Below are positions 7,764-55,405 of a stretch of 64,000 nt of DNA, one piece after another. The notes beneath the pieces are model-generated. The model was not told the DNA's origin. It worked only from the letters and a program-made list of their open reading frames with translations, and searched no databases. Every line of letters begins with the position of its first letter. The first letter of the stretch is position 1. A program made the position numbers and the translations under genes. The stretch comes from Streptomyces sp. CA-210063 (GTDB lineage Bacteria > Actinomycetota > Actinomycetes > Streptomycetales > Streptomycetaceae), in the NCBI RefSeq assembly GCF_024612015.1, contig NZ_CP102512.1, positions 8,804,001 through 8,868,000 of the forward strand, in the 5' to 3' direction.

Positions 7764-7883
7764 GGCCTACCTCGTCAGGGGTGGGCCTTACGCGGCGTCG
7801 CTCCCTGTGCCACTGTCCGCTCATGTCTGTCGTCTTCGACAGCCCCGGAGTCCGTGCCCTTACGAGGCAGGAGGACCCGGGAA

Positions 7884-8504: not shown

Positions 8505-9133
8505 ACTCGCTGAACACCGTCGCCTTCACCGCCTTCGGCCAGCAGATCCTCTGGTCGGACATGATCGGCAACATCCTGGGTCTGATCGCCCTCGCCCTCG
8601 GCGCGATCCGCTCCCTGTGGAACTGGCCCGTGCAGTTCCTCTCCGGCCTCATCCTCTTCGGCGCCTTCGCCGGCCACCTGACCGGCAGCGCCGGCAAGCA
8701 GGTCATCGTCATGGCCGTCGCCGCGTACGGCTGGTGGCAGTGGAACCGTACGAAGGGGCGGACGGCGGACGGCGCCATCGCCCCGCGCTTCGCCACCTGG
8801 CGCGAGCGGGGCTTCCTCATCGGCGGCGCCGTCCTCGGCACCCTCGCGGTCGGCGCCCTCTTCACCGCCTTCCCGACCCTGTCCTGGGACCCCTGGCCGG
8901 ACGCGTACATCTTCACCGGCACCATCGTCGCCATGTACGCCCAGGCGCGCGGCATGGTCGAGTTCTGGTTCGCCTGGCTGCTGGTCGACCTCGTGGGCGT
9001 ACCGCTCAACTTCGCCAACGGCTACGCCTTCTCCGGTTTCGTCTACATCATCTACGGCGCGCTCGTCCTGTGGGGCATGCGCGACTGGTGGCTGCGCTCC
9101 CGCAAGCCCACCCTGGAAGGAGCCCCGGCATGA
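8501..9133 (+). CDS. ribM: PnuC-family riboflavin transporter, RibM type
   Basis: 210 residues with about seven hydrophobic helices and the PnuC signature [17 protein letters not shown] and YGWWQWNR. PnuC proteins carry nicotinamide mononucleotide or riboside, but the copy inside actinobacterial rib operons (RibM, studied in S. davawensis and Corynebacterium) carries riboflavin. Position between ribE and ribBA under an FMN riboswitch supports that assignment here. GTG 8501 overlaps the ribE stop by four bases, and its own stop overlaps the ribBA ATG, so all three are translationally coupled. Confidence 0.88.
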
Positions 9134-10428: not shown

Positions 10429-10467
10429 CACCAGCGAGTACGAGATGCAGAAGAACCAAGGAGCAAC

Positions 10468-10953
10468 GTGAGCGGCAAGGGCGCACCCGAACTGTCCGTA
10501 CGCAACTGCGGCGACCTGCGCGTCGCGGTCATCGCGGCCCAGTGGCACGAGAAGGTGATGGACGGCCTCGTGGACGGCGCCCTGCGCGCCCTGCGCGACC
10601 TGGGCATCGACGAGCCGACCCTCCTGAGGGTCCCCGGCAGCTGGGAGCTCCCCGTCGTCGCCAAGGTCCTCGCGGGCCGCGGCTACGACGCGATCGTCGC
10701 CCTCGGCGTCGTCATCCGCGGCGGCACCCCCCACTTCGAGTACGTGTGCCAGGGCGTCACCCAGGGCCTCACCCAGGTCTCCGTCGACACCGGCGTCCCC
10801 ATCGGCTTCGGCGTGCTGACCTGCGACACCGAGGAACAGGCCCTGGACCGCGCGGGCATCGAGGGCTCGAACGAGGACAAGGGGCACGAGGCGGTGACGG
10901 CGGCCGTGGCGACCGCCGCCACCCTCCGCTCAGTATCCGAACCCTGGCGCTGA
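10468..10953 (+). CDS. ribH: 6,7-dimethyl-8-ribityllumazine synthase
   Basis: 161 residues, usual length. [11 protein letters not shown] and [15 protein letters not shown] (substrate phosphate loop and the catalytic His region) and [16 protein letters not shown] are family hallmarks. It condenses the RibBA products to the lumazine that RibE uses, assembling as pentamers or 60-mer capsids. GTG 10468 follows AAGGAGCAAC. It lies 39 bases after ribBA, last gene of the operon. Confidence 0.96.
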
Positions 10954-10987
10954 GGCACAGTCGGTAGCGCGTAGGCTGAGCCTCACC

Positions 10988-11260
10988 ATGTCCAAGAAGA
11001 CGTTCGAGGAGCTCTTCACCGAGCTCCAGCAGAAGGCCGCCCACGGCGACCCCGCCACTTCCCGCACCGCCGAACTGGTCGAGAAGGGCGTCCATGCCAT
11101 CGGCAAGAAGGTCGTCGAAGAGGCCGCCGAGGTCTGGATGGCCGCCGAGTACGAGGGCAAGGAAGCCGCCGCCGAGGAGATCTCGCAGCTGCTGTACCAC
11201 GTCCAGGTGATGATGGTCGCCCGCGGCATCTCCCTGGACGACGTGTACGCCCACCTCTGA
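10988..11260 (+). CDS. hisE: Phosphoribosyl-ATP diphosphatase
   Basis: 90 residues, an all-helical MazG-like protein with [31 protein letters not shown]: the paired acidic EExxE / ExxQ motifs bind magnesium. Second step of histidine synthesis (PR-ATP to PR-AMP). ATG 10988 has no Shine-Dalgarno; a TAGGCT hexamer ends 11 bases before it, so it may be transcribed as a leaderless or near-leaderless mRNA separate from the rib operon 34 bases upstream. Confidence 0.95.
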
Positions 11261-11312
11261 GCCGTACCCCGCACACAACTCCGTACAGAACCGAACGAAG
11301 GAAGCTCGCCTC

Positions 11313-12170
11313 ATGCTGCGCATCGCCGTCCCCAACAAGGGTTCCCTCTCCGGCCCTGCGGGGGAGATGCTGCATGAGGCCGGCTACCAGCAGCGCCGGG
11401 AGTCCAAGGAGCTGCGGATCGTCGACCCGGAGAACGAGGTCGAGTTCTTCTACCTCCGCCCCCGCGACATCGCGATCTACGTCTCCTCAGGCCGCCTCGA
11501 CATCGGCATCACCGGCCGCGACCTGCTCATCGACTCCGGCGCCAACGCCGAGGAGATCCTGCCGCTCGGCTTCGCCCGCTCCACCTTCCGCTTCGCCACC
11601 AAGCCGGGCACGGCGAACGGCATCGCGGACCTCAAGGGCATGACGGTCGCCACCTCCTATGAGGGCATCGTCGCCAAGCACCTCGCCGACAGCGGCATCG
11701 ACGCCTCCGTCGTCCACCTCGACGGCGCCGTCGAGACCGCCATCGAGCTGGGCGTCGCCGAGGTCATCGCGGATGTCGTCGAGACCGGAACCTCGCTGCG
11801 CAACGCGGGCCTGGAGGTCTTCGGCGACCCCATCATGAAGTCCGAGGCCATCGTCATCCGCCGGGTCGGCGCCGACACCTCCTCGGAGAACGAGCCCAAG
11901 GTGCAGCAGTTCCTGCGCCGCCTCCAGGGCGTCCTCGTCGCCCGGACGTACGTGATGATGGACTACGACTGCCGCGTCGAGCAGTTGGAGAAGGCCGTCG
12001 CCCTCACGCCGGGCCTGGAGTCCCCGACCGTCTCGCCGCTGCACAACGAGGGCTGGGTCGCCGTGCGCGCCATGGTCCCGGCCAAGGAGGCCCAGCGGAT
12101 CATGGACGACCTGTACGACATCGGTGCCCGGGCCATCCTGACGACGGCCATCCACGCCTGCCGCCTCTGA
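11313..12170 (+). CDS. hisG: ATP phosphoribosyltransferase, long form
   Basis: 285 residues. MLRIAVPNKGSLS and DIGITGRDLL mark the catalytic domain; EVIADVVETGTSLRNAGLEVFGDPIMKSEA is the PRPP loop; the C-terminal about 75 residues (LTPGLESPTVSPLHNEGWVAVRAMVPA) form the ACT-like regulatory domain of HisG-long, which binds histidine for feedback inhibition. First and committed step of histidine synthesis. It lies 52 bases after hisE with GAAGGAAG upstream, likely the same transcript. Confidence 0.96.
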   Translation: MLRIAVPNKGSLSGPAGEMLHEAGYQQRRESKELRIVDPENEVEFFYLRPRDIAIYVSSGRLDIGITGRDLLIDSGANAEEILPLGFARSTFRFATKPGTANGIADLKGMTVATSYEGIVAKHLADSGIDASVVHLDGAVETAIELGVAEVIADVVETGTSLRNAGLEVFGDPIMKSEAIVIRRVGADTSSENEPKVQQFLRRLQGVLVARTYVMMDYDCRVEQLEKAVALTPGLESPTVSPLHNEGWVAVRAMVPAKEAQRIMDDLYDIGARAILTTAIHACRL

Positions 12171-12190
12171 CGGCCGGGGAGTCGTACACC

Positions 12191-12664
12191 ATGTCGGACC
12201 AGTCCGCCCGCCCCGCTCTGCCCGCCCTGCCCGTCACTTTTCGGCCGGGACGCACCCGGGCCGTGCTGCTGACCGCGGCGGGCGCGATCTTCGTGGTCAT
12301 CACGGTGGTCGCGCTGCTGCTGCCGACGCTCGGCCCGGGGGAGCGGCTCAGCTTCGTCTTCACGGCGGCCATGCTCGCCGGAGTGCTGTGCATGCTGTCC
12401 CGGCCCAAGGTGGTCGCCGACGAGTCCGGTGTGACCGTCGTCAACATCGCCGGGAAGCGGCACCTCGGCTGGGCGGAGATCGTCCAGGTGAACCTGCGGG
12501 TCGGCGACCCCTGGGTCTTCCTCGACCTCACCGACGGCACCAGCCTGCCCGCGCTCGGCATCCAGCCCGGCATCGCCAAGCAGCGCGCCATCGAGGACGC
12601 CCGGGCCCTGCGGGCGCTGGTGGAGGCCCGCTCGGTCACCGAGCCCGAACAGCGTCAGGGCTGA
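12191..12664 (+). CDS. PH-domain-like small membrane protein
   Basis: 157 residues: two hydrophobic helices (about 22-48 and 56-72) followed by a bacterial PH-like beta domain (PKVVADESGVTVVNIAGKRHLGWAEIVQVNLRVG), the usual layout of actinobacterial PH domain-containing membrane proteins found after hisG. The exposed domain probably faces the cytoplasm. Function unknown. GGGGAG precedes the ATG by about ten bases; it lies 20 bases after hisG, so it is probably co-transcribed. Confidence 0.8.
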   Translation: MSDQSARPALPALPVTFRPGRTRAVLLTAAGAIFVVITVVALLLPTLGPGERLSFVFTAAMLAGVLCMLSRPKVVADESGVTVVNIAGKRHLGWAEIVQVNLRVGDPWVFLDLTDGTSLPALGIQPGIAKQRAIEDARALRALVEARSVTEPEQRQG

Positions 12665-12758
12665 TCCGCTTCCGCTTGGGGGACGACTCCGAGCAAGATC
12701 AGGGCCGACTCATGGCCGTCGCCCCTGCCGTAACCGCCCATGTCTTGATTAATCTGTT

Positions 12759-12816
12759 GGCGGAGGTGTTTTCGTTGCGCCTCCGCCTCCGCTGTTCCGG
12801 TCCGGAAAGCGGAGGC
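12759..12816 (+). promoter_or_regulatory. Two competing hairpins in the leader of the DUF21/CBS operon
   Basis: GGCGGAGG (12759-12766) pairs with CCTCCGCC (12780-12787). The next bases GCCTCCGCT (12785-12793) pair with AGCGGAGGC (12808-12816), extended inward by TTCC/GGAA. The CCTCCGC motif occurs twice, so the first hairpin can also shift into the arm of the second, making the two mutually exclusive. The pair lies 93 bases before the ATG. No clear U-run follows. It could equally end the preceding transcript. Confidence 0.4.
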
Positions 12817-12908
12817 TCCCTGCTATTCGAGGAGTGACTCCCTCCAGCGATGGACGGATCGTCCTGTAGTACCTGCGCCGCCCCCTCCCCGCATATCGAG
12901 GCGGCGGC

Positions 12909-14252
12909 ATGACCATCCCCCTGCTGCTCCTCGGAGCCGCGTTCCTGCTGATCCTCGCCAACGGTTTCTTCGTGGCGGCCGAGTTCGGCCTCGTGACGGT
13001 CGAGCGGCCGGAGGCCGAGAAGGCCGCGGCCGAGGGCGACCGCCGGGCCCACAAGGTGGTGGACGCGCTCAAGGAGCTGTCGTTCCAGCTCTCCGGCACC
13101 CAGCTCGGCATCACCATCACCTCCCTCGTCGTCGGCATGCTCGCCGAACCGGCGCTCGCGGAGATACTCCACGGCCCCTTCACCGCCATCGGCATACCCG
13201 AAGGCGCCGTCTCCGGAGTCTCCGTCGTCGTCGGCATGCTGCTGGCCTCCGCCGTGCAGATGGTGATCGGCGAGCTGGTGCCCAAGAACTGGGCGGTGTC
13301 GAAGCCGATGCAGGTCGCCCGCTTCGTCGCGGGCCCCCAGCACGTCTTCTCCCGTCTCTTCCGCCCGGTCATCGCCGGCCTCAACGCGGTCGCCAACCGC
13401 CTGGTCCGCGCCTTCGGCGTCGAGCCCACCGACGAGCTGGCCTCCGCCCGCACCCCGGGCGAACTGGTCTCCCTCGCCCGGCACTCGGCCCAGGCCGGCG
13501 CCCTGGAACAGGACACGGCCGACCTCTTCGTCCGGACCCTCTCCCTGGGCGAGCTGACCGCGGAGAACGTGATGACGCCCCGCGTCAAGGTCAGCGCCCT
13601 GCAGTCGTCGGCCACCGCCGAGGACGTGGTCAATCTGACCCGCGCCACCGGTCTGTCCCGCTTCCCCGTCTACCGGGAGCGGATCGACGAGATCGTCGGC
13701 ATGGTCCACCTCAAGGACGCCCTCGCGATCCCGGCCCACGACCGGCTGCACACCCCGGTCACCCGCATCGCCAAGCCCCCGCTGCTCGTCCCGGAGACGC
13801 TGCCCGTGCAGCCGCTCCTGGCCCGGCTGCGCAGCGAGCAGCCCATCGCCGTCGTCGTCGACGAGTACGGCGGTACGGCGGGGGTCGTGACCCTCGAGGA
13901 CATCGTCGAGGAACTGGTCGGCGAGGTGCGCGACGAGCACGACGGGCACGACCTGCCCGAACTCGCCGCCGCCCCGCCCGAGGACGGCCGCCCCGCCTGG
14001 GACGTCGACGGCAGCTGCCGTGTCGACGTGCTCCAGCGCATTGGCCTCGACGTCCCGGAGGGCCCGTACGAGACGGTCGCCGGCCTCGTCGCCGACCTGC
14101 TCGGCCGTATCCCCGCGCCCGGCGACAAGGCCGAACTTCCGGGCTGGCGCCTGGCGGTACGGCAGGTCGGGCACTACCGGGCAGAGCGCGTACGACTCGT
14201 ACGGACCGCTGCCGCCACGGAACCCCTCGCCGTGGTGGAGGCGGCCCGATGA
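12909..14252 (+). CDS. HlyC/CorC (CNNM) family membrane protein with CBS pair
   Basis: 447 residues. DUF21/CNNM membrane domain at about 1-190 (LLLILANGFFVAAEFGLVTVERP, then three further helices and VIGELVPKNWAVSKP), a CBS pair at about 205-335 (MTPRVKVSALQSSATAEDVVNL; VVVDEYGGTAGVVTLEDIVEELVGEV), and a C-terminal CorC_HlyC domain (about 345-435). Relatives bind Mg-ATP through the CBS pair and move or sense magnesium (CNNM, MpfA) or cobalt. ATG follows GCGGC without a strong Shine-Dalgarno. Coupled by ATGA to the second copy. Confidence 0.9.
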   Translation: MTIPLLLLGAAFLLILANGFFVAAEFGLVTVERPEAEKAAAEGDRRAHKVVDALKELSFQLSGTQLGITITSLVVGMLAEPALAEILHGPFTAIGIPEGAVSGVSVVVGMLLASAVQMVIGELVPKNWAVSKPMQVARFVAGPQHVFSRLFRPVIAGLNAVANRLVRAFGVEPTDELASARTPGELVSLARHSAQAGALEQDTADLFVRTLSLGELTAENVMTPRVKVSALQSSATAEDVVNLTRATGLSRFPVYRERIDEIVGMVHLKDALAIPAHDRLHTPVTRIAKPPLLVPETLPVQPLLARLRSEQPIAVVVDEYGGTAGVVTLEDIVEELVGEVRDEHDGHDLPELAAAPPEDGRPAWDVDGSCRVDVLQRIGLDVPEGPYETVAGLVADLLGRIPAPGDKAELPGWRLAVRQVGHYRAERVRLVRTAAATEPLAVVEAAR

Positions 14253-15337
14253 GCGTGCTCCAACTCCTGTTCGCCCTGCTCCTCGTCCTCGCCAACGGCT
14301 TCTTCGTCGGCGCCGAGTTCGCCCTGGTCTCCGTCCGCCGCAGCCAGATCGAACCGCTGGGCACCGCACGGGCCCGCCAGGTCCTCTACGGCCTGGAGAA
14401 CCTGCCGCAGATGATGGCGGCGGCCCAGTTCGGCATCACCGTCTGCTCGCTGACGCTCGGCGCGGTGGCCGAGCCGACGGTGGCGAAGCTGCTGGAGCCG
14501 GTGTTCGAGGCGATCCATCTGCCGCACGGCGTGATCCACCCCTTGGGGTACGTGATCGCCCTCGCCGCCGTGGTCTTCCTGCACCTCGTCGTCGGCGAGA
14601 TGCTGCCGAAGAACCTGGCGATGGCCGCGCCGGAGAAGACGGCGCTGTGGCTGAGCCCGGCGCTGGTGGCCTTCGCCCGGCTCTGCAAGCCGGTCACCGT
14701 GGGCCTCGGCGCCTGCGCCCGCCTCGTCCTGAAGCTCTTCCACGTCGAGCCCAAGGACGAGGTCGAGGCCGTCTTCACCAGTGTCCAACTGGTTCGGCTG
14801 GTCGAGGACTCCGGCCAGGCCGGGCTGCTCGACCCCGAGGAGCAGGAACGCCTGGAGGACGCGCTGGAGCTGGGCTCCCGCCCGGTCACGGACGTCCTGC
14901 TGAAGCGGGACTCCCTGGTGACGGTGGTGCCCTCGGTGACCCCGGCCCAGGTCGTGGCCCTCACCGCCCGCACGGGTTACTCCCGCTTCCCGGTGGTCGC
15001 GGAGAACGGCGCCTTCATGGGCCGCTACCTCCACGTCAAGGACGTCCTCGACCTGGAGGACTCCGACCGCGCCGTCCCCCAGCAGATCTGGCGCCCCATG
15101 ACGACCCTCCGCGCCGAGCTGCCGCTGGACGACGCGCTGACGGTCATGCGCCGCGCCGCCACCCATCTGGCCCAGGTGGCGGACGCCTCCGGCAAGGTCC
15201 TGGGCCTGGTCGCCCTGGAGGACGTCCTGGAACTCCTGGTCGGCGAAGTCCGCGACCCGGCCCACCGCGAGCCACCACCGGTCCGGGTGACGGAGCCGAG
15301 GGGCAGCGAAACCCCGGAGGAGGCCTTGGCGAGCTGA
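14249..15337 (+). CDS. Second HlyC/CorC (CNNM) family protein, lacking CorC_HlyC tail
   Basis: 362 residues, paralogue of the upstream gene: DUF21 domain about 1-190 (LLVLANGFFVGAEFALVSVRRSQIEPL; VVGEMLPKNLAMAAPEK), CBS pair about 205-330 (VTDVLLKRDSLVTVVPSVTPAQVVAL; GLVALEDVLELLVGEV). It stops soon after the second CBS motif, so the C-terminal acidic domain of its partner is missing. Its ATG overlaps the upstream stop, so equal translation and a heteromeric channel are likely (inference). Ion specificity unknown; magnesium is the best family guess. Confidence 0.9.
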   Translation: MSVLQLLFALLLVLANGFFVGAEFALVSVRRSQIEPLGTARARQVLYGLENLPQMMAAAQFGITVCSLTLGAVAEPTVAKLLEPVFEAIHLPHGVIHPLGYVIALAAVVFLHLVVGEMLPKNLAMAAPEKTALWLSPALVAFARLCKPVTVGLGACARLVLKLFHVEPKDEVEAVFTSVQLVRLVEDSGQAGLLDPEEQERLEDALELGSRPVTDVLLKRDSLVTVVPSVTPAQVVALTARTGYSRFPVVAENGAFMGRYLHVKDVLDLEDSDRAVPQQIWRPMTTLRAELPLDDALTVMRRAATHLAQVADASGKVLGLVALEDVLELLVGEVRDPAHREPPPVRVTEPRGSETPEEALAS

Positions 15338-15392
15338 TTCCGCCCCCCAGACCCCCGGGCCGGTTGTTCGGCTGCGGGTGGGTGGTGCTTCT

Positions 15393-44937: not shown

Positions 44938-45819
44938 TCAGGCCACGCGGTACTGCTCGTCGCGGGCGTCGGTCAGGAACATCTGGCCCGGTGCGTGGGT
45001 GATCGCGAAGGGCGGGCGGGAGGCCATCACCGCGGCCTGGGGCGTCACCCCGCAGGCCCAGAACACCGGGATGTCGTCCGGCTCGGCGTCCACCGGGTCG
45101 CCGAAGTCCGGGCAGGACAGATCCGCGATGCCGAGGCCCGCCGCCTCGCCGCAGTGCACCGGGCCTCCGTGCACGGCCGGCAAGAGACTGCTCTCCCGGA
45201 TCGCGGCGGCCAGATGCTCGGGCGGCACCGGGCGCATCGACACCACCATCGGGCCCCGCACGCGCCCGGCGGGCCGGCACTGACGGCCGGTGACGTACAT
45301 GGACACGTTGCGGCCCTGCTCGATGTGGCGCATCGGGACGCCCGCCTCGGTGAGCGCCCACTCGAAGGTGAAGCTGCACCCGATCAGGAACGACACCAGG
45401 TCCTCCCGCCAGACGTCCACCACGTCCGTCGGCTCGTCCACCAACTCACCGTGCTCCCACACCCGGTAGCGCGGCAGATCGGTGCGCAGGTCCGCGCCCT
45501 CCGCGAGCGGAGTCGTCCACGCACCGGCGTCCGTGACGTCCAGAACGGGACAGGGCTTGGGGTTGCGCTGGCAGAACAGCAGCATGTCGTACGCCCAGTC
45601 GGCGGGCACCGAGATCAGGTTCGCCTGGGTGTGCCCGGCGGCGACCCCGGCGGTGGGCCCCGCCACACCCGAGCGGAACCGGGCGCGCGCCTTCTCGGGG
45701 GTCCACGCGCGCGCGTGCGGGTCGACGAAGGTCAAGGGACGGTCCTGCGCGGTGGGGGCCGGAGGACGGTCCTGGTCGGTGCGGGATCGGGGACGGTCCT
45801 GGGTGGTCACGTGGTTCAC
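44938..45819 (-). CDS. D-glutamate cyclase-like / putative hydro-lyase (DUF1445)
   Basis: 293 residues. [138 protein letters not shown] are the conserved blocks of the D-glutamate cyclase family. The human member makes 5-oxo-D-proline from D-glutamate. In an operon with PxpABC this links D-glutamate or related cyclic amides to the oxoprolinase. GTG 45819 overlaps the MFS stop (GTGA) with AAGGAACT upstream. Confidence 0.85.
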
Positions 45820-47135
45820 ACCAGTTCCTTTCCGCGTGTCTCCGGAAGGCCGAACAGGGCCACCGCCGCCAGGCCGTAGCCGATCGCGCCGAAGATCAGC
45901 GCGCCGCCGACGCCCCAGCTGTCGGCCAGGAAGCCGACCGTGGTGGGGAAGACGGCGCCCACCGCCCGCCCGGTGTTGTACGTGAAGCCCTGCCCGGTGC
46001 CCCGGACGGCCGACGGGTACAGCTCGCTGAGGAACGAGCCGAAGCCACTGAAGATCGCCGACATACAGAAACCGAGCGGGAAACCGAGCACCAGGAGAAG
46101 GGTGTTGGCGCCGCTCGGGATGTTCGCGTACGCCAGGATGCACAGCGCCGAGAGCACCGCGAAGAGCCAGATGTTCCGCCGGCGGCCCAGCCGGTCGGTG
46201 AGATAGCCGCCGGTGAGGTAGCCGATGAAGGCGCCGGAGATCAGGAACGTGAGATAGCCGCCGGTGCCCACGACCGACAGACCCCGCTCCGTCTTCAGGT
46301 AGGTGGGCACCCAGGTCGCCAGCGTGTAATAGCCGCCCTGGACACCGGTGGAGAGCAGCACCGCGAAGACCGTGGTGCGCAGCAGACCGGGAGCGGTGGC
46401 CGTGCCCGGCCGGAAGATCGCGGCGAACGAGCCCCTCTCGGCGCTCTTCTCCCGCGCGGCCGCCGCCTCCGGGGCGTCCTCGACCGAGCGGCGTACCCAG
46501 ATGACGAGCAGTGCGGGGAGCGCGCCGGTCCAGAACATCACGCGCCAGGCGAGGTCGTCGTCGAAGAAGGAGAAGACCATCGTGTAGACGATCACGGCCA
46601 GTCCCCAGCCCACGGCCCAGGAGCTCTGGATCGCGCCGAGCGTACGTCCCCGGTGCTTGGCGCTCGCGTACTCGGCGACCAGGATCGCGCCGACCGCCCA
46701 CTCACCGCCGAAGCCCAGCCCCTGAAGGGCGCGGAAGACCAGCAGCGTCTCGTAGTTGGGGGCGAAGCCGCAGGCCACGGTGAAGACCGCGTACGTGATC
46801 ACGGTGATCATCAGCGCCTTCACGCGCCCGATCCGGTCCGCGAGGACGCCCGCGACGGCGCCGCCGATCGCCGAGACGACCAGCGTGACCGTGGTGAACA
46901 GCCCGGACTGGCCGTTGTCCAGTCCGAAGTAGGCCGTGAGCGCGACCATGCTCAGCGGCAGCGTGAAGTAGTCGTACGAGTCGAGCGCATAGCCACCGAA
47001 CGCGCCGCCGAAGGCGCGGCGGCCGCGCGGGCCGAGGGCGCGCAGCCAGCCGAACGCGCCGTCGTCGGAGGCCGGTTCGCCCGGGGCGGGTTGAGTGGCG
47101 GAGGTCAGGGACTGGGCGGGAGGGGTCGTGCTCAT
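45816..47135 (-). CDS. MFS transporter of the 5-oxoproline operon
   Basis: 439 residues, 12 helices. [11 protein letters not shown] (motif A), [33 protein letters not shown] (motif characteristic of metabolite:H+ symporters), [22 protein letters not shown]. Related to the aromatic-acid/dicarboxylate branch (JEN, PcaK-like). Likely the importer of 5-oxoproline or a related acid, by context. GAGGTG precedes ATG 47135. Its 3' end overlaps the cyclase-like gene, so it heads the operon. Confidence 0.85.
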
Positions 47136-47253
47136 GGGCACCTCGCAGTGAGGGAGGAGAGTGCGTAGGGACTGAGTCGTGCCGTGTTGCCGTGCCGTGC
47201 GGGAGCGGTCGGCGCCGGGAGCCGAGCGGAGGACGCCTGCCCAGCAAGGTAGA

Positions 47254-47270
47254 GGATCGTTGAACGATCC
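47254..47270. promoter_or_regulatory. GntR/FadR-type operator
   Basis: GGATCGTT-G-AACGATCC: perfect 17-bp palindrome with the FadR-subfamily core TnGTnnnACnA (TCGTTGAACGA). It lies in the 184-base divergent region between the MFS operon and the GntR gene, 119 bases from the MFS ATG and 50 from the GntR ATG. Confidence 0.8.
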
Positions 47271-47319
47271 CTCAATACCTATGTTGTTTCGTTCTTGTGT
47301 CTGCGGTTGAATTCCGGGC

Positions 47320-48015
47320 ATGGCCGCCGAACTGACCGGACTTGCCGACGACCGCGCCCTCCTCGGGCGCACCAGCACCGCCGAGCGGGTTTCGGACATC
47401 CTCCGAAGCCGGATCGCCGAGGGCTTCTTCCCGCCCGGGACGCGACTGTCCGAGGACAGCATCGGCGGCGCCCTCGGCGTCTCCCGCAACACCCTCCGCG
47501 AGGCGTTCCGCCTGCTCACCCATGAACGGCTCCTCGTCCACGAGCTCAACCGCGGCGTCTTCGTACGGGTGCTGACCGTCGAGGACGTCGAGGACATCTA
47601 CCGCACCCGCCGCCTCGTCGAGTGCGCCGTCGTACGCGGCCTCGGTGCCCCGCCGTACGGACTCGACGGGCTCGCCGAAGCCGTCGCGGAGGGGCAGCGG
47701 GAGGCGCGCGAAGGTGACTGGAAAGGTGTGTCCACCGCGAACATCCACTTCCACCGCGAACTGGTCGCCCTCGCCGGCAGCGCCCGCACCGACGAGCTGA
47801 TGCGCAGCGTCTTCGCCGAACTCCGGCTCGCGTTCCACGTGGTGGACAATCCACGCAAGTTGTACGAGCCGTATCTGGCGCGAAACCTGCTGCTCCTGCA
47901 GACACTGCAGCGGGGGGAGCGGGACGAGGCCGAGCGGATGCTGGCGGAGTATCTCGACGACTCGCTGAAGGGGCTGGTCGAGGTGTACGGGCGACGGGTT
48001 GCCGACGTCTCCTGA
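47320..48015 (+). CDS. GntR-family regulator with FCD domain
   Basis: 231 residues. Winged helix at about 18-85 (TAERVSDILRSRIAEGFFPPGTRLSEDSIGGALGVSRNTLREAFRLLTHERLLV), FCD domain about 95-225 with the metal-binding pattern ... NIHFHRELVALAGSARTDEL .. LLLLQTLQRGERDEAERMLAEYL. The HxxH-type region fits metal/carboxylate ligands. It is divergent from the 5-oxoproline operon and should repress it, induced by a pathway acid. The ATG has no Shine-Dalgarno. Confidence 0.9.
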   Translation: MAAELTGLADDRALLGRTSTAERVSDILRSRIAEGFFPPGTRLSEDSIGGALGVSRNTLREAFRLLTHERLLVHELNRGVFVRVLTVEDVEDIYRTRRLVECAVVRGLGAPPYGLDGLAEAVAEGQREAREGDWKGVSTANIHFHRELVALAGSARTDELMRSVFAELRLAFHVVDNPRKLYEPYLARNLLLLQTLQRGERDEAERMLAEYLDDSLKGLVEVYGRRVADVS

Positions 48016-48087
48016 GACGCCGGTCCCGGCCTCGCCCCGACGGAACGATTTGGGTCGTTGTCAGACCCAGGACCTAGTCTGTGCACC

Positions 48088-49611
48088 GTGACTTCACCCG
48101 CATCGACGGACAGCGTTCCGCCCCAGCTCAGCGCGGGGCCGCGCCCCGCGCTGGGCCCGGCCGCCGACGAGGGACTGGCGCGGCGGCTGCGCGCGCTCGC
48201 CTGCACCGCGCCGTTGCACGACCTGGACGCCCGCAAGGCGAACCTCGCCGGTGAGTACTCGGTGTACGGCATGGCGGAGGTAGCCCTCGCCGCCATCGAC
48301 CTGGTCACACTGAACATGGACTTCGACACGGGCGCGGACCACGACCAGATAGTCGCCCGCCTCATCCCCCGCATCGCCGCCCAGGCCCCGCGACGCCCCG
48401 TCGAGGAGCACGAGCGGGTGGCCCGCTGGGTCCTGGAGAACCTGATCAACGTCGGCAGCGTCGACCGCGGCTTCCGGGCCGTATACGGAACGTTCGCGCC
48501 CGACGGCACGTATGTGCGCCGCGACTACGACTTCAAGCTGATCGAGGAGGTCCCCGGCTTCGGGGGCGGCGTCTATCTCCGTACGACCGACGAGGCCGTC
48601 AACGTCCTCGTGGGTGCCCTCGACACCGATGTCACCAGCGCCCAGATCGCCGCCGAGGTCAAGCTCGAGGTGCTGATCAGCCGAGGCCGGCTCGCCGACG
48701 CCCAGCTCGCCGCGGAGCAGGCGCGCTACCGGACCGTGCAGTACTCGGAGACGCTCAGGAAGGCGCTGGACGCCACCCGGCGCAATGTCCGCGCGGTCGA
48801 CTGGCTCCAGACCGTGCCCGACATGATCGCCGAGGCGCTCGACCACGTCGCCGACCGCTACCGCCACGAGAACGCGATCCTCACCAACATCCGCAAGGCC
48901 CGTGACGAGTCCGAGGACCCCGAGCACAAGCGGCGCGCCGCCGAGCTCGTCGACATCGTCAAGGACTGCATCCGGCGGCACACTCAGCTGCAGTCCCGGC
49001 TGCTGGAGGCCGGTCCGCTGTTCCGCGCGGAACAGGACCGGCAGGCCTTCGCCACGCCGATGACGACGTCGGGGATAGATCTGTACGGGCATCTGGTCGC
49101 GCCCCTGCTGCCGCTGCCGGTGGAGCAGGCGCGGAAGGTGACCGACGCGTTCTTCGCCGGTGGGACGGGGTTGCGTACACCGGGGTCTGTGCGGGTGGGG
49201 GACCTTGTCGATCTGCTGTTCACGCCGCCGGTGGAGCGGGAGCACCTCGGGGCGGAGATGCCGGAGCCGGATCTGATCGCCACGCCCGACGACAGCCGGT
49301 TCAGTGAGGAGCAGTTGACGGCGGCGAAGGAGCTGTTGGATCTGCCGGCCGACGCGCCGCGGAGGTTGTCCGGGTTGTTGGCGGAGGCGCGGCTTCAGGA
49401 TGCGGAACTGCCTTATCTGGTCGCCCTGTTGGCCGTGCATGCGGCGAGTCCGCCGGTCGGTACGGCTTATCGGCAGGGGGAGGAGAAGCTGCTGTTCGCC
49501 GTGGACGACGGGACGGAGCTGGACGATCCCGAGTTCGGTGGGGCGGATTTGATCGTGGGGATGGCTTTGTTGGATGCGGCGGGGATGGCAGCCGATCGGG
49601 AGGCTGCGTGA
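48088..49611 (+). CDS. Kleisin-like subunit of an SMC/MukBEF-like complex (hypothetical)
   Basis: 507 residues, first of three genes. N-terminal region with winged-helix character (GEYSVYGMAEVALAAIDLVTLNMDFD; HERVARWVLENLINVG), a beta segment RRDYDFKLIEEVPGFGGGVYLRTTDEAVNVLVGALD, then a helical middle (residues about 190-320: KLEVLISRGRLADAQLAAEQARYRTVQYSETLRKALDATRRNVRAVDWLQTV ... DIVKDCIRRHTQLQSRLLEAG) reminiscent of MukF/JetA. The C-terminal part is winged-helix-like. This is my structural reading; no signature is decisive. The GTG appears leaderless: TAGTCT ends 7 bases before it. Confidence 0.6.
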   Translation: MTSPASTDSVPPQLSAGPRPALGPAADEGLARRLRALACTAPLHDLDARKANLAGEYSVYGMAEVALAAIDLVTLNMDFDTGADHDQIVARLIPRIAAQAPRRPVEEHERVARWVLENLINVGSVDRGFRAVYGTFAPDGTYVRRDYDFKLIEEVPGFGGGVYLRTTDEAVNVLVGALDTDVTSAQIAAEVKLEVLISRGRLADAQLAAEQARYRTVQYSETLRKALDATRRNVRAVDWLQTVPDMIAEALDHVADRYRHENAILTNIRKARDESEDPEHKRRAAELVDIVKDCIRRHTQLQSRLLEAGPLFRAEQDRQAFATPMTTSGIDLYGHLVAPLLPLPVEQARKVTDAFFAGGTGLRTPGSVRVGDLVDLLFTPPVEREHLGAEMPEPDLIATPDDSRFSEEQLTAAKELLDLPADAPRRLSGLLAEARLQDAELPYLVALLAVHAASPPVGTAYRQGEEKLLFAVDDGTELDDPEFGGADLIVGMALLDAAGMAADREAA

Positions 49612-49664
49612 GAGCGCCGTTGAGCTGCGGGTTCGCGTTCGGCTGCAGGTTGTTTGTGGCTGGT

Positions 49665-49685
49665 CGCGCAGTTCCCCGCGCCCCT
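49665..49685 (+). repeat. Dispersed CGCGCAGTTCCCC element, single arm
   Basis: One arm of the element seen complete at 15393-15438, preceded by CTGCAGGTTGTTTGTGGCTGGT, which is also found before the copy at 29581. It lies in the 121-base gap between the first and second gene of the SMC-like cluster. Confidence 0.75.
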
Positions 49686-49732
49686 TACTTCGCTGCCCCG
49701 CCCTCTTGTTATGAGACCAAGGAGTTCCCGCC

Positions 49733-50611
49733 GTGAGTGAGCAAGTCGAGTGGAGTGAGCCTGAGACGGCTGCCGCTCCGGTGGTTGCTGCCCTCACTCC
49801 CGCCGACGCCGCCGATGCCGCTCGGCTCGTTGCCTTTGGGTTGCAGCCCAAGCTTCAGCCTGCGCGGGACCAGGAGTACGGGGAGTTGCTGCGGCGGTAT
49901 CGGGAGGACCCGGCGTTCGCGCGGCTGGCCGATGCCGTGGCCACCGGGCTCGGGCTGGTCGTGCTGGAGGTGTCGCCGCGGGCGGGAATGGCGGTCACGG
50001 CGGCCGAGGACTCGGTGTTCGCGGTGCGGATGGGGGACTACGCGCGGCGGACGTCGGCGGACTCGGTGGACCGGTTCCTGCACGGGCTGGCGCATCTCGC
50101 GGTCGCCGCGATGGCGTTTCCGCGGCCGGAGGACCTCGCGGACGACGGGTACATCGGGCGGGTGTCGGTCAACGGGGTCGACGCCTTCGTCCGGCAGGCC
50201 TGTCGGCGGCTGGAGGAGCGGGCCGAGGCGCAGGGGGAGAACACCGACCCGGCGAGCGACGCGCCAGGCCTTGAGTCGGCCTGGCGGATCTGGGCGAGAC
50301 GCAGTTCCACCGGTGCCACGAAGGACGCGCGCCGCCTGGCCGGCTCGACCACCGGCATCATCGGCAAGGCGGTGGGCTTCCTGACCGACTCGGGATTCCT
50401 GCAGCGCACGGGCGACGACAACGGCGGTACGTATCGGACGACCGCGCGTTATCAGCTCCAGGTACGGGACATGGCGGGCAGTGCCGCGATGGCCGAGCTG
50501 CTGGAGCTGGGGATCGTACCGGTCACCGACGGCACGGCCACGCTGCTGCCCGCCGAGGAGACCGACGATCTGGAGCTGGTGGCCGACGCCGGACTGCCGT
50601 TCCACTCCTGA
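49733..50611 (+). CDS. Winged-helix (KITE/MukE/JetB-like) subunit of the SMC-like complex
   Basis: 292 residues. An N-terminal variable part, then a first helical/winged-helix domain (EYGELLRRYREDPAFARLADAVATGLGLVVLEVSPRAGMAVTAAEDSVFAVRMGDYARR) and a central region SADSVDRFLHGLAHLAVAAMAFPRPEDLADDG. A second winged helix is at about 180-245: AWRIWARRSST ... TTGIIGKAVGFLTDSGFLQRTGDDNGGTYRTTARYQLQVRDM. Two tandem winged helices are the layout of KITE proteins (MukE, ScpB, JetB). GTG 49733 follows AAGGAG. Gene order (kleisin-like, this, ATPase) equals JetA-B-C and MukF-E-B. Confidence 0.6.
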   Translation: MSEQVEWSEPETAAAPVVAALTPADAADAARLVAFGLQPKLQPARDQEYGELLRRYREDPAFARLADAVATGLGLVVLEVSPRAGMAVTAAEDSVFAVRMGDYARRTSADSVDRFLHGLAHLAVAAMAFPRPEDLADDGYIGRVSVNGVDAFVRQACRRLEERAEAQGENTDPASDAPGLESAWRIWARRSSTGATKDARRLAGSTTGIIGKAVGFLTDSGFLQRTGDDNGGTYRTTARYQLQVRDMAGSAAMAELLELGIVPVTDGTATLLPAEETDDLELVADAGLPFHS

Positions 50612-50707
50612 TGTCCTGCTCATTCCTGTCTATTTCCGCCCGTTCCCGACTCCTGACCTCACGAACCACCGACCGCACCACCGATACGACCGCGAAAGTC
50701 CGCCGCC

Positions 50708-53700
50708 ATGTACGAGCTGTCCCGGGTCCGCCTCTACTCCATCGGGCCGGCCGGTGCGCGCTACGCCGACACCGTGCTGGACCTGAGGGGTGTCGGCGAG
50801 TACGTGCCCGACCCCGCGCCGCAGCAGGCGGAGTTCTTCGAGGAGGAGCCCACCGGGCCGCCGCGTCGCCCCGCGCCCGCGGGTGTGCTCTTCCTGGAGA
50901 ACGGCGGTGGCAAGTCGGTCCTGCTCAAGCTGATCTTCTCGGTGATGCTGCCGGGCCACCGGAACACGCTGGGCGGTGCCAGCTCGGGTGTGCTGCGGAA
51001 GTTCCTGCTGGCGGACGACTGCGGGCATGTCGCGCTGGAGTGGCAGCACACGCTGACCGGTGAGTGTGTCGTCGTCGGCAAGGTGAGCGAGTGGCGCGGA
51101 CGGCAGGTCTCCAACGATCCGCGGAAGTTCGCCGAAGCCTGGTACTCGTTCCGGCCCGGGCCCGGACTGAGCCTGGACAACCTGCCCGTCGCCGAAGCCA
51201 CCGCCGTACGGCCGCCCGTCGAAGGCGCGTCGGGAGCGCAGGGGCGGCGGCGGACCATGAAGGGCTTCCGGGACGCCATCACCGAGGCCGGCAAGGCGTA
51301 TCCGCACCTCGAAGTGCACTGGGAGGAGATCCACGACCGCTGGAACGAGCATCTGACGGACCTCGGTCTCGACCCCGAACTCTTCCGCTATCAGCGGGAG
51401 ATGAACGCGGACGAGGGTGAGGCCGCCGGGCTGTTCGCGGTGAAGAAGGACTCCGACTTCACGGATCTGCTGCTGCGGGCGGTCACTGATACGCGTGACA
51501 CCGACGGTCTCGCCGACCTGGTCGGCGGCTTCGGCAACAAGCTCGGCCGGCGGGCCGAGCTGATCGCCGAGCGGGACTTCACGGCCGGGTCCGTGGACCT
51601 GCTCGGGCGGATCGTCGAGGCCGCCGAGGGCCGGGCACGGGCGCGGGACATCCACGCGGGCGCCGAGCGGCGCACCCGCACACTGGCCCGGCGGCTGTCG
51701 GCGCGGGCCGCGCGGGAGCGGCTGCGGGGCACCGATCTCGCCCAGCGGGTCACCGCCGCCGCATACGCGGTCACGCATTCCGAGGCCGCCCGTGATCGCA
51801 GCGCGCTGATCGCGGCCGAACTCGCCTACCGGCACGCCTCGTTGGCACTGGCCGCCGCCGAGAAGACGGCCGCAGCCCAGAAGCGGGAGCTCGCCGACGC
51901 GCGCACACTGCACTCCGCCTGGCAGGCCGCCGAGGCCGTCCTCAGGCACCGGGCCGCCGCCGACCGGGTGGCCCGCGTGGCCGCCGCCATCCAGGAGGCC
52001 GAACGGGACGCGGCCCCGGCGCTCGCCGCCCGCGCCAAGGCCGCCGTCGACCTCGTACGTGCCCTGGCCGCCGCCGCCGAGAGCGCCGAGGAACTGGCGA
52101 ACGAGGGCGAAGAGCGGTCGGCCGCCCTGCAGGAGGTCGGCGAGGCCGCCCACCGGGACTCGACCGTCGCGGCCACCGAGGCGCAGCGCGCCCGCAGCGA
52201 AGTCGGGCACCTGAAGCAGCGGCTCAGCGAGGTCGAACAGGAGACCGCCGAGGCCGTCCGCGCGGGCTGGCTCGACGACAGCGCGCCCGACGCCGATCCG
52301 GCCCGGGCCGCCCTCGCCGCCAGCGACGCGGAGAAGACGGCCGTCGCCGCCTGGGACACCGCACGCGAGGCCTCGCGCCGTGCCTCCGAGCACGCCCGGG
52401 AGGCGGCCTCCGCCGAGTCCCGCGCGGAGCTGACGGCCGCCCGCGCGGCGGACGCGGCCGTCGCCGCCGAGCGCGCCTACGACGGGGAGCGCCGTACGGC
52501 GGAGGCCCTGGCGGGGGAGGAGCGGCTGGCGGAACTGCTGAGCCTGCCGGGTGCCTCCGGCAGAGCGCGGCCTGCGGTGCCCGTGCCGCGCAGGGGCGGT
52601 GCCACCGATGCCGACCCGGGTACGGCCACCGAGGCGGCCGACGGCTCCCGTACGGCCTCCGGCGACGCCACGGGTGCTCACGCCGAAGGCACCCTCACCC
52701 CCGAGGAGCTGGACCGCTTCGCCGACGAGCTGCGCGAGTTGCTCGACGAGAGCGTGTCGTCCGCCGAGCGCCACCTCTTCGAGCTGCGCACCGCCGCGGC
52801 CGACGACTCCCGCATCCTGGGCGCTCTCGGCGACGGCGGGCTGCTGCCGCCGGGCCCCGACGTCCTGGCGACGGTCGAGTTCCTCGGCGAGCACGGCATC
52901 CCGGCCCTCCCCGGCTGGCGCTACCTCGCCCAGGCTGTGGACCCGGCCGACCACGCGCGCGTACTGGCCGCCCGCCCCGAACTGGTCGACGGCGTGATCA
53001 TCACCGATCCTGCCTCGCACGCCCGGGCCCGCGAGGCGCTGAGCGACGCGGCACTGCTCCCGAGGTCCGCCGTGGCCGTCGGTACGGCAGCGGCCCTGCT
53101 GGCACCGACCCCGCCCGTGGACTCGGGCGACGGTGACGTCTTCCTCGTACCGCCGAACCCGGCCATGCACGACGAGCACGCCGCCGACGAGGAGCGGCAG
53201 GCGCTGCGCGCGCGGGCGACCGAGCGGGACGAGGAGATCCGGGAGCTGGCGGCCCGGCTCGGCAAGGACCGGGAACTCGCCGCGCGACTCGCCTCGTGGC
53301 GCACGGGCTGTCCGGCGGGGCGGCTCACGGAGCTGGCCGCGGCCGCGCAGGAGACGCGGGCGTTCGCCGCGGAGTCCGAGGCGGAGCTGGCGGAGGCGCG
53401 GACCGTGCGGGCCGAGGCCGAGGAGGCGGCGGCCGAGGCCGCCCAGGTGCGGGACGAGCGGCAGGAGGCCGCGCAGAAGGCCCGGCGTGCCGCCGACGCC
53501 CTCGCCGGGCTCGCCTACCGGCTGCGCGAGCGCGCCGGCTGGCAGGTCAAGCTCCGCGAACTCGCCGACGAGGCCATGGAGTCCGAGGCCCGCGCCCAGT
53601 CCTGTCTCGAGCGCGCCCGCGCCGCCGACGAGGACCGGCGTGCCACCCAGCGCGGCGCCGACGACGCCCGCCGCACGGCGCGCGCCCTGCGCGCCGAGCG

Positions 53701-55405
53701 CGCCGAGATCGCGGGAGCCCCCGACGACGTACCGGAGGCCGACTCCGACGCGCCGAAGCAGCCCCTCGCCGCCCTCCGCGAGGCCTACCGGGCAGCCTCC
53801 CAGGTGTACGAGAAAGTCGGCGTCGGCGCCGATCTACGTGCCGAGCAGGCGCGGGCCGAGAGCGACGAGAGCGCCGCGATCGCCGAGCTGGACCGGCTCA
53901 CCAACAAGGTCCACAACCGTGCCGCGCAGTTGCTCCAGTCGCCCGATGGCTCCGACGGGCCGTCCCGGCAGGCCGCGGCAGCGCGCGCCGAGGAACTCGT
54001 CCAGCTCCTCGAAACCCGTGTGTCCACCGCGAGCGAGCAGCTCGGGCGGCTGCGCGGTGAGGCCGAGCGGCACGCGCCCAAGGACGGCGAGGCGCACACC
54101 GAGCTGCCCGAGGAGCTGATCCCGCGCGACGCCGACCACGCCCAGGCCCTGCTGCGCACCGCCACCGCCGAACTCGCCTCCCGGACCGAGGCATTGACGC
54201 AGGCCCGCGAGGCCCACGCCGAACTGCTGGAGTCCCACCGCGCCGCGGAGGACGCGGCCGGCGGCTTCGACGAGACGGCCGCCCTGCTCCGGGACCTCCT
54301 GCGCGACCATTCCACGGACGACGACCAGGAGGAGCCCGAGCCCTACCCCGGCTGTCTCGAGGACGCCCGCAAGGCCGCGGCCGAGGCCCGCCGTTCGCTG
54401 CGCGGCTGCGCCGCCGACCTCTCCGCCGCCGAGGGCGCCGTCCGCGAGGCGAGCGACATCCTCGTACGCCATGCCAACTCCACCCGCTACGAGCAGGTCC
54501 GCACGCCCGCCCGCCAGCAGATCCGCGAGCTGCCCGCCTCCTCGCTCCCCGAGCACGCCCAGAAGTGGGCCGACGCCTTCGCGCCCCGACTCCGGGTCCT
54601 CACGGACGAGTTGGCGCAGCTGGAACGCAACCGGGACTCGATCGTCGACCGGCTGCGAGGCCTCGTGGAGTCGGCCCTCGCGACCCTCCGGTCCGCCCAG
54701 CGGCTGTCCAGGCTCCCCGAGGGGCTGGGGGAGTGGTCCGGCCAGGAGTTCCTGCGCATCCGCTTCGAGGAGCCCGACCAGGCCACCCTCGCCGAGCGGT
54801 TGGGCGAGGTCGTCGACGAGGCGACCCGCGCGGCGGTGAAGAAGAACTCCGACATGCGCCGCGACGGCATGTCCCTGCTGCTCCGGGGCGTCAGCGCCGC
54901 GCTCCAGCCCAAGGGCGTCGCCGTGGAGATCCTCAAGCCGGACGCGGTGCTGAGGGCCGAGCGCGTCCCCGTCGGACAGATGGGCGATGTCTTCTCCGGC
55001 GGCCAGCTGCTCACCGCCGCCATCGCCCTGTACTGCACGATGGCCGCCCTCCGCAGCAACGACCGGGGCCGGGACAAGCACCGCCACGCGGGAACGCTGT
55101 TCCTCGACAACCCCATCGGCCGCGCCAACGCGACGTACCTGCTGGAACTCCAACGGGCGGTCTCGGACGCCCTGGGCGTCCAACTCCTCTACACCACGGG
55201 CCTGTTCGACACGACCGCCCTGGCGGAGTTCCCCCTGGTCATCCGCCTCCGCAACGACGCCGACCTACGAGCGGGCCTGAAGTACATCAGGGTGGAGGAA
55301 CACCTCCGCCCGGGACTGCCCCGTGAGACAGCGGCCGGCGAGGCCGCACACACCGAGATCACCGCGACCCGTATGTACAAGAGACCAGCTACAACCGCCC
55401 CGTAA
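50708..55405 (+). CDS. SMC/MukB/JetC-like ATPase with long coiled coils (1565 aa)
   Basis: Head-coil-hinge-coil-head layout. N-head: FLENGGGKSVLLKLIFSVMLPG, P-loop Lys69. Coil 1 (about 255-600): Ala/Glu/Arg-rich heptads. Hinge-like globular region (about 695-805): ADDSRILGALGDGGLLPPGPDVLATVEFLGEHGIPALPGWRYLAQAV ... VDGVIITDPASHARAREAL. Coil 2 (about 820-1350). C-head: ABC signature FSGGQLLTAAIALYC (Ser1430) and Walker B TLFLDNPIGRANATYL with Asp1467 followed by Asn1468, where SMC proteins have Glu. FtsK/RecN-like repair ATPases are less likely because the hinge is present. ATP-driven DNA loop extrusion is the family function; plasmid/phage defence is one known use. Confidence 0.7.
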   Translation: MYELSRVRLYSIGPAGARYADTVLDLRGVGEYVPDPAPQQAEFFEEEPTGPPRRPAPAGVLFLENGGGKSVLLKLIFSVMLPGHRNTLGGASSGVLRKFLLADDCGHVALEWQHTLTGECVVVGKVSEWRGRQVSNDPRKFAEAWYSFRPGPGLSLDNLPVAEATAVRPPVEGASGAQGRRRTMKGFRDAITEAGKAYPHLEVHWEEIHDRWNEHLTDLGLDPELFRYQREMNADEGEAAGLFAVKKDSDFTDLLLRAVTDTRDTDGLADLVGGFGNKLGRRAELIAERDFTAGSVDLLGRIVEAAEGRARARDIHAGAERRTRTLARRLSARAARERLRGTDLAQRVTAAAYAVTHSEAARDRSALIAAELAYRHASLALAAAEKTAAAQKRELADARTLHSAWQAAEAVLRHRAAADRVARVAAAIQEAERDAAPALAARAKAAVDLVRALAAAAESAEELANEGEERSAALQEVGEAAHRDSTVAATEAQRARSEVGHLKQRLSEVEQETAEAVRAGWLDDSAPDADPARAALAASDAEKTAVAAWDTAREASRRASEHAREAASAESRAELTAARAADAAVAAERAYDGERRTAEALAGEERLAELLSLPGASGRARPAVPVPRRGGATDADPGTATEAADGSRTASGDATGAHAEGTLTPEELDRFADELRELLDESVSSAERHLFELRTAAADDSRILGALGDGGLLPPGPDVLATVEFLGEHGIPALPGWRYLAQAVDPADHARVLAARPELVDGVIITDPASHARAREALSDAALLPRSAVAVGTAAALLAPTPPVDSGDGDVFLVPPNPAMHDEHAADEERQALRARATERDEEIRELAARLGKDRELAARLASWRTGCPAGRLTELAAAAQETRAFAAESEAELAEARTVRAEAEEAAAEAAQVRDERQEAAQKARRAADALAGLAYRLRERAGWQVKLRELADEAMESEARAQSCLERARAADEDRRATQRGADDARRTARALRAERAEIAGAPDDVPEADSDAPKQPLAALREAYRAASQVYEKVGVGADLRAEQARAESDESAAIAELDRLTNKVHNRAAQLLQSPDGSDGPSRQAAAARAEELVQLLETRVSTASEQLGRLRGEAERHAPKDGEAHTELPEELIPRDADHAQALLRTATAELASRTEALTQAREAHAELLESHRAAEDAAGGFDETAALLRDLLRDHSTDDDQEEPEPYPGCLEDARKAAAEARRSLRGCAADLSAAEGAVREASDILVRHANSTRYEQVRTPARQQIRELPASSLPEHAQKWADAFAPRLRVLTDELAQLERNRDSIVDRLRGLVESALATLRSAQRLSRLPEGLGEWSGQEFLRIRFEEPDQATLAERLGEVVDEATRAAVKKNSDMRRDGMSLLLRGVSAALQPKGVAVEILKPDAVLRAERVPVGQMGDVFSGGQLLTAAIALYCTMAALRSNDRGRDKHRHAGTLFLDNPIGRANATYLLELQRAVSDALGVQLLYTTGLFDTTALAEFPLVIRLRNDADLRAGLKYIRVEEHLRPGLPRETAAGEAAHTEITATRMYKRPATTAP

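What the first reader, a model, noticed from the sequence alone, without database searches (positions are those of the whole stretch)
48088..55405. Three-gene condensin-like (MukBEF/Wadjet-style) locus lacking a nuclease gene
A 507-aa protein with winged-helix and long helical segments, a 292-aa protein with two winged helices and a 1565-aa SMC-like ATPase lie in the same order as JetA-B-C and MukF-E-B. Wadjet systems add JetD, a topoisomerase-like nuclease that cuts plasmids; the gene after the ATPase here is choline dehydrogenase, so no JetD-like gene is present on either side. This may be a chromosome-organising condensin of Streptomyces distinct from Smc-ScpAB, or a defence system using another effector. 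Gene order and ATPase motifs are seen directly; the subunit roles are inference.
Basis: partly seen in the sequence, partly recalled or inferred. Interest (0 to 1): 0.78.

Follow-up and report, generated by a model that had tools for sequence, protein, structure and literature searches.

The report
Nuclease-free Wadjet-like condensin of streptomycetes
Streptomyces and their relatives almost all carry, at a conserved chromosomal place, a DNA-folding machine that looks like the plasmid-cutting Wadjet defence system without its cutting enzyme, and its promoter resembles those of their DNA-repair genes, which suggests that it helps handle damaged chromosomes rather than kill plasmids.

Summary
Window 48088-55405 encodes JetA-, JetB- and JetC-like proteins (type III Wadjet by PADLOC for A and C; JetB by fold) and no JetD. 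It is a core locus, not a stray fragment. JetA at 80% identity or more is in 146 of 150 Streptomyces genomes, and strong matches are in 16 of 17 sampled Streptomycetaceae genera. JetD was not found at any of 33 informative family loci. Strong JetD3 is in only 12 of 150 Streptomyces, at least 0.30 Mb from the core JetA or on another contig. Coding sequences are under purifying selection; ATPase motifs are intact.

Unexpectedly, 81 of 82 family loci carry TGTC-N12-TANNNT with a GTG start 6-8 nt after the -10 box. This resembles the RecA-NDp/PafBC DNA-damage promoter (strict form in 15 of 82; a variant in this window). Other sites in this genome precede recA, uvrB, ruvC and an MGMT gene.

Best reading: a JetD-less JetABC loop extruder kept for the chromosome, probably within the DNA-damage response. 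Composition, conservation and promoter are shown by sequence; induction and chromosomal action are inferred. New variant of a known kind (compare MksBEF without MksG). No paper on it was found in the library searched.

The parts
48047..48053 (+). TTTGG-type box (family consensus CGTTT(C/G)G; the window reads GATTTGG), 12 to 6 nt upstream of the TGTC box
   Evidence: Columns 0.91-0.98 conserved over 81 loci except the variable C/G; no consensus at that place in 30 other motif sites of this genome; window letters
48058..48080 (+). RecA-NDp/PafBC-like promoter element TTGTCAGAC-N8-TAGTCT (variant of TTGTCRGTG-N8-TANNNT), -10 box 7 nt before the GTG start (leaderless geometry)
   Evidence: TGTC-N12-TANNNT in 81 of 82 family loci, reversed control 2, 50 shuffles at most 1; one of 43 TTGTCRG-N10-TANNNT sites in the genome against 6 reversed
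48088..49611 (+). JetA/MukF-like kleisin subunit, 507 aa
49733..50611 (+). JetB/MukE-like KITE (winged-helix) subunit, 292 aa
50708..55405 (+). JetC/MukB-like SMC ATPase, 1565 aa
   Evidence: PDLC00588 1400 bits
50897..50917 (+). Walker A ENGGGKS of JetC
54992..55006 (+). ABC signature FSGGQ of JetC
55100..55120 (+). Walker B FLDNPIG of JetC (D-N where SMC proteins usually have D-E, recalled; D-N also in the JetD-bearing relatives)

Best explanation
The three genes encode a JetABC-type SMC complex (JetC ATPase, JetA kleisin, JetB KITE) that descends from type III Wadjet, lacks the JetD nuclease, and has been kept as a core chromosomal complex by Streptomycetaceae. The promoter most likely puts it in the RecA-NDp/PafBC DNA-damage regulon beside recA, uvrB and ruvC. 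On this model, single-stranded DNA from damage activates PafBC, which switches the operon on. The complex then loads on chromosomal DNA and extrudes loops by ATP hydrolysis, holding or compacting damaged arms or sisters while repair proceeds. With no JetD, a completed extrusion does not end in a cut. Shown by sequence: three subunits, intact ATPase motifs, no JetD beside them, vertical core distribution, purifying selection, promoter conservation. Inferred: complex formation, loop extrusion, induction by damage, PafBC as activator, action on the chromosome.
For: JetA3/JetC3 profile hits; MukF- and MukE/JetB-type folds. JetA match in 147 of 150 Streptomyces, 146 at 80% identity or more, and in 198 of 200 family genomes (genus of G445 only weakly). 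JetD absent at 15 Streptomyces and 18 other-genus loci with at least 2.5 kb after JetC. Strong JetD3 in 12 of 150, nearest 0.30 Mb from the core JetA; all 12 have a second JetA match. JetA+JetB tree: JetD absence needs one change. dN/dS 0.07-0.40 over 7 pairs. pxpA-like neighbour in 26 of 35 loci. Promoter 81 of 82; motif 43 v 6 in this genome, 472 v 4 in 31 family genomes. Co-sited genes recA, uvrB, ruvC, MGMT, RecD2-like, dnaX, ligA. P. aeruginosa MksBEF, thought to be JetABCD that lost JetD, acts on the chromosome (PMC10586767, passages).
Against: No expression or phenotype data. The window's own site has GAC in place of GTG; only 20 of 82 loci keep TGTCRGTG, 9 of 63 in Streptomyces. In the other JetD-less family (f18) only 2 of 15 loci have TGTC-N12-TANNNT and none TGTCRGTG. 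One JetD-bearing relative of seven, L096, has the full motif, and so has L094, whose JetD state is unknown: the promoter may predate the loss of JetD and does not by itself mean 'not defence'. A few genomes lack the locus. The joint branch of the two JetD-less families is 85/75, not starred. A JetD acting in trans is not excluded. PMC9380542 (passages) reports that an initial search did not support the M. smegmatis PafBC motif in S. venezuelae.
Confidence: 0.52

Rival explanations
1. A house-keeping second condensin: like P. aeruginosa MksBEF it organises or segregates the chromosome (for example in sporulating hyphae) all the time, and the promoter element is only a leaderless promoter that resembles the damage motif.
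For: Core distribution and conserved place; the MksBEF precedent in P. aeruginosa (PMC10586767, passages); the GTG of the motif is lost in 54 of 63 Streptomyces loci; a second conserved box, not seen at 30 other motif sites, suggests extra control.
Against: TTGTCA lies only 11 nt from the -10 hexamer, too close for a -35 box (established sigma-factor spacing), yet the arrangement is kept in 81 of 82 loci; the same layout precedes recA, uvrB and ruvC in this genome.
Confidence: 0.25
2. A defence system without a cutter: JetABC compacts or silences circular foreign DNA, or borrows a nuclease encoded elsewhere (such as the JetD of the second operon).
For: Descent from Wadjet; a JetD3 exists in this genome; a JetD-bearing relative has the same kind of promoter (L096).
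Against: Near-universal presence at a conserved place, unlike patchy JetD3; only 12 of 150 genomes have a strong JetD3 to borrow; the subunits of the two loci in this genome are only about 25-30% alike; no conserved fourth gene in the flanks surveyed.
Confidence: 0.15
3. A decaying Wadjet remnant that lost JetD and does nothing.
For: JetD is missing.
Against: Open frames in the loci inspected, dN/dS 0.07-0.40, Walker A and signature motifs kept, promoter kept in 81 of 82. Two of the listed JetA matches do hold a stop inside, G087 and G028.
Confidence: 0.02

Closest known systems
Wadjet type III (JetABCD, PADLOC JetA3/JetC3/JetD3)
   Same: JetA and JetC profile matches, gene order A-B-C, fold of JetB
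   Different: No JetD; core instead of patchy; a damage-type promoter, which at least one JetD-bearing relative shares
MksBEF of Pseudomonas aeruginosa (without MksG)
   Same: SMC, kleisin and KITE without a nuclease, beside SMC; [quoted passage not shown]
   Different: This one matches type III Wadjet profiles, is actinobacterial and has a damage-type promoter
MukBEF
   Same: MukF- and MukE-type folds for JetA and JetB; gene order as the finding states
   Different: No usable PDB sequence match; MukBEF replaces Smc-ScpAB (PMC10586767, passages), whereas here ScpA is present
MksBEFG of Corynebacterium glutamicum
   Same: Actinobacterial second SMC complex beside Smc-ScpAB
   Different: Has the MksG nuclease, controls plasmids and leaves chromosome architecture alone (PMC7083940, passages)
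RecA-NDp/PafBC damage regulon
   Same: Promoter layout TTGTC...N8-TANNNT, shared with recA; SCO6735 of S. coelicolor is a UV-inducible gene with such a promoter (PMC5087735, passages)
   Different: No SMC complex is named as a member in the passages that I read

Membership tests
Wadjet (JetABCD) | JetA, JetB and JetC encoded in order | tested here: met
   JetA3 and JetC3 profile hits; JetB by fold only
Wadjet (JetABCD) | JetD Toprim nuclease gene in the operon | tested here: not met
   None next to the trio or at 33 family loci searched with three JetD3 proteins; strong JetD3 genes of 12 of 150 genomes lie at least 0.30 Mb away or on another contig
Wadjet (JetABCD) | Restriction of small circular plasmids | not testable with these tools
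   Needs transformation or conjugation assays
MukBEF/MksBEF-type condensin | SMC ATPase with Walker A, ABC signature and Walker B | tested here: met
   ENGGGKS, FSGGQ, FLDNPIG; Walker B is D-N
MukBEF/MksBEF-type condensin | MukF-like kleisin | tested here: met
MukBEF/MksBEF-type condensin | MukE-like KITE subunit | tested here: met
MukBEF/MksBEF-type condensin | Acts on chromosome structure or segregation | not testable with these tools
   Needs deletion, Hi-C and microscopy
Smc-ScpAB | ScpA-type kleisin in the locus | tested here: not met
   No Pfam hit at E up to 1 for any of the three proteins; ScpA is encoded elsewhere, G000:C1:8405876
RecA-NDp/PafBC regulon | TTGTCRGTG-N8-TANNNT upstream of the gene | tested here: inconclusive
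   Window has GAC for GTG; strict form in 15 of 82 family loci, core TGTC-N12-TANNNT in 81 of 82
RecA-NDp/PafBC regulon | Induction by DNA damage that depends on PafBC | not testable with these tools
   No expression data within reach

The most novel reading that the evidence does not exclude
Streptomycetes turned a plasmid-cutting Wadjet into a dedicated DNA-damage condensin: the nuclease was lost, the operon stands under the ssDNA-sensing PafBC promoter (perhaps inherited from a JetD-bearing ancestor), and the loop extruder holds broken or entangled chromosomes together, a bacterial functional counterpart of Smc5/6.
Probability: 0.35. Interest if true: 0.85.

Novelty: new variant of a known kind. 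Interest (0 to 1): 0.66.

Why it matters
In the papers that I saw, Streptomyces chromosome biology is described with SMC as its condensin (PMC13121528, passages). A second SMC complex kept by nearly the whole family, whose JetB records are named 'hypothetical' or 'uncharacterized' almost throughout the 120 listed, would be a missing player. It is also a natural case of an SMC immune machine without its cutter, with JetD-bearing relatives in some of the same genomes, so the change can be tested side by side. The motif counts bear on an open question too: PMC9380542 (passages) left open whether Streptomyces has a PafBC-type damage response.

Tried and rejected
Pfam PF09983 as a JetD detector found none in the genome although a JetD3 is there; it was replaced by PADLOC PDLC00594. 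PDB sequence searches with the JetB and JetA alignments and with JetC found nothing usable. JetB N-termini were read for a JetD-contact motif like the IFDR of type I JetB; nothing recognisable, not pursued. A first gene caller for the flanks gave antisense ORFs and was replaced by a codon-trained one, whose largest downstream cluster (16 of 35) still looks, by eye, like an antisense ORF. Tblastn hits of the query D74 inside JetC were rejected: D74 was read stop to stop and its first part lies opposite JetC; only its residues from about 500 on are JetD. JetC could not be folded (1565 aa, limit 1200). Rows dropped before counts: the 82-locus promoter count leaves out the f18 and JetD-bearing loci, told apart; the tree uses 39 of the loci in hand, one of them (L094) without a JetD state because its contig ends in JetC. 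Of 17 fetched Streptomyces core loci, 2 (L073, L077) end within JetC. Of 19 loci of other genera, L148 has only 0.5 kb after JetC. Of 15 f18 loci, 5 (L081, L086, L088, L091, L092) end before, within or 0.1 kb after JetC. So 15, 18 and 10 are informative.
Full report

2. Neighbours. Upstream is a GntR regulator (47320-48015, +), downstream a GMC oxidoreductase on the - strand. No JetD is on either side. The genome (10.86 Mb, one contig) has ScpA and another JetABCD operon about 3.9 Mb away, whose JetD matches PDLC00594.

3. Distribution. JetA matches in 147 of 150 Streptomyces genomes (one per species); 146 have a listed match of 80% identity or more, one of them partial (G081), while G121 has only a weaker match. 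In the family, 198 of 200 genomes match; 16 of 17 genera strongly, the genus of G445 only at E 3.7e-15; G499 and G547 not at all. In the class, 43 of 296 genomes and 5 of 114 genera match: the own genus and four genera of one other family, f18, at about 60% identity. Named relatives are Streptomyces and one Kitasatospora (80 best loci); JetB records named S. venezuelae and S. avermitilis are among the 120 listed of 1193 matches.

4. JetD. Searched with three JetD3 proteins, none was found at 15 Streptomyces core loci and 18 loci of other genera with 2.5 kb or more after JetC, nor at 10 informative f18 loci of 15. All seven divergent loci fetched with complete JetC (L065, L066, L074, L095-L098) carry JetD after JetC. 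Over 150 Streptomyces, 22 match JetD3 at E 0.001 or better, 12 of them strongly (best E 9.6e-50 or better); the other 10 are partial, E 2e-7 to 8e-4. Set, the 12 strong ones are on other contigs or at least 0.30 Mb from the core JetA, and all 12 genomes have a second JetA match. On the JetA+JetB tree the Streptomycetaceae clade has 100/99, f18 100/100 and their union 85/75; absence of JetD needs one change. One loss is the simplest reading, not proven.

5. Core gene. An upstream neighbour that I recognise as pxpA-like (not searched) recurs in 26 of 35 loci, 15 of 19 from other genera. Downstream, where the stretches hold mostly 2.5-4.5 kb, the largest cluster is 16 of 35 and looks antisense; the next is 8 of 35. 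In 15 contiguous genomes that I picked, the trio lies 0.21-3.44 Mb from the nearer contig end. NG86 dN/dS over seven chosen pairs is 0.07-0.22 (JetA), 0.09-0.40 (JetB), 0.13-0.32 (JetC). Georjon et al. (PMC10482375, passages) report Wadjet in 42% of Actinobacteria and enriched towards chromosome ends in Streptomyces; the core trio differs in being near universal.

6. Promoter. At 48058-48080 the window reads TTGTCAGAC-N8-TAGTCT, 7 nt before the GTG start. Over the 82 Streptomycetaceae core loci in hand (63 Streptomyces, 19 of ten other genera, one per genome), TGTC-N12-TANNNT occurs within -100..+60 in 81 (reversed control 2; 50 shuffles, at most 1), with GTGA 6-8 nt after it in all 81; TTGTCRG-N10-TANNNT in 50; the strict form in 15. 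TGTCRGTG-N8-TANNNT is in 20 of 82: 9 of 63 Streptomyces, 11 of 19 others. A further box, CGTTT(C/G)G, just upstream is conserved at 0.91-0.98 and has no counterpart at 30 other sites of this genome. In this genome TTGTCRG-N10-TANNNT has 43 sites against 6 in the reversed control; the strict motif has 35 against 0 here and 472 against 4 over 31 family genomes. Of the 42 other sites I scanned the downstream ORF of 30 with Pfam. Ten look like repair, replication or helicase genes: recA, uvrB, ruvC, MGMT, RecD2-like, two DEAD-type helicases, dnaX and, at GAC-type variant sites, ligA and an SNF2-type helicase; the others do not. No background rate of repair genes was measured. Two adjacent WYL genes lie at 8585768 and 8586758, as pafB and pafC would (inference). 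PafBC engages a -26 element and is activated by ssDNA (PMC11804915, passages); its motif closely resembles RecA-NDp (PMC8223512, passages), and RecA-NDp promoters are known in Streptomyces (PMC5087735, passages).

7. Promoter outside the family clade. With chosen start codons, 2 of 15 f18 loci (L089, L091) have TGTC-N12-TANNNT at -30/-29, none TGTCRGTG. Of seven JetD-bearing loci one, L096, has TGTCAGTG-N8-TANNNT at -46; so has L094 at -29, whose JetD state is unknown. The damage-type promoter may therefore be older than the loss of JetD. I left the odds as they were: this widens the footprint, yet shows that the promoter alone does not tell repair from defence.

8. Mechanism. Motor, kleisin and KITE are kept, the cutter is gone, the locus is core, and the promoter resembles those of repair genes. 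The simplest model is a damage-responsive loop extruder for the chromosome. P. aeruginosa MksBEF, thought to be JetABCD without JetD, acts on the chromosome (PMC10586767, passages), while C. glutamicum MksBEFG, with its nuclease, does not (PMC7083940, passages). Induction, PafBC dependence and chromosomal action are inferred.

9. Novelty. Searches of the held library for Wadjet with Streptomyces, JetABC without JetD, MksB with Streptomyces, MksBEF/MksG combinations (20 of 147 listed), Wadjet/PafBC/MksB combinations and MukB-like/JetC combinations listed no paper whose title or abstract start treats this trio. Most subscription papers and all bioRxiv preprints are outside that library, so this is no proof that it is unpublished.

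Noticed in passing
L098 (G000:C1:4960000-4979900): JetA 7640-9157, JetB 9021-9935, JetC 9935-14320, JetD 14320-15357: The same genome has a divergent type III JetABCD operon (about 25-30% identity to the window's trio).
   Followed up: partly
G000 genome and 30 other Streptomycetaceae genomes: The strict RecA-NDp/PafBC motif is strongly enriched (472 sites against 4 reversed), although PMC9380542 reported that an initial search did not support the M. smegmatis PafBC motif in S. venezuelae.
   Followed up: partly
window 48047-48053 and family loci: A second conserved box, CGTTT(C/G)G, sits just upstream of the TGTC element of the trio and has no counterpart at 30 other motif sites; its binder is unknown.
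   Followed up: no
L096 (G107) upstream of JetA 8248; L094 (G384) upstream of JetA 8298: A JetD-bearing JetABCD operon and a divergent operon of unknown JetD state have the full damage motif upstream: some true Wadjet operons may be damage-controlled.
   Followed up: partly
L148 10583-14838 (G580): About 4.2 kb separate JetB from JetC and hold a 765-aa ORF that looks like a molybdopterin oxidoreductase (recalled resemblance, not searched).
   Followed up: no
G445, G499, G547; G050, G073, G079, G121: Family genomes with no or only a weak JetA match; several are incomplete or in many contigs.
   Followed up: no
window 45819-47597 (-) and 47320-48015 (+): The MFS transporter ORF and the GntR ORF overlap head to head by 278 bases; the MFS start is probably further in (the codon-trained caller gives 441 aa).
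   Followed up: no
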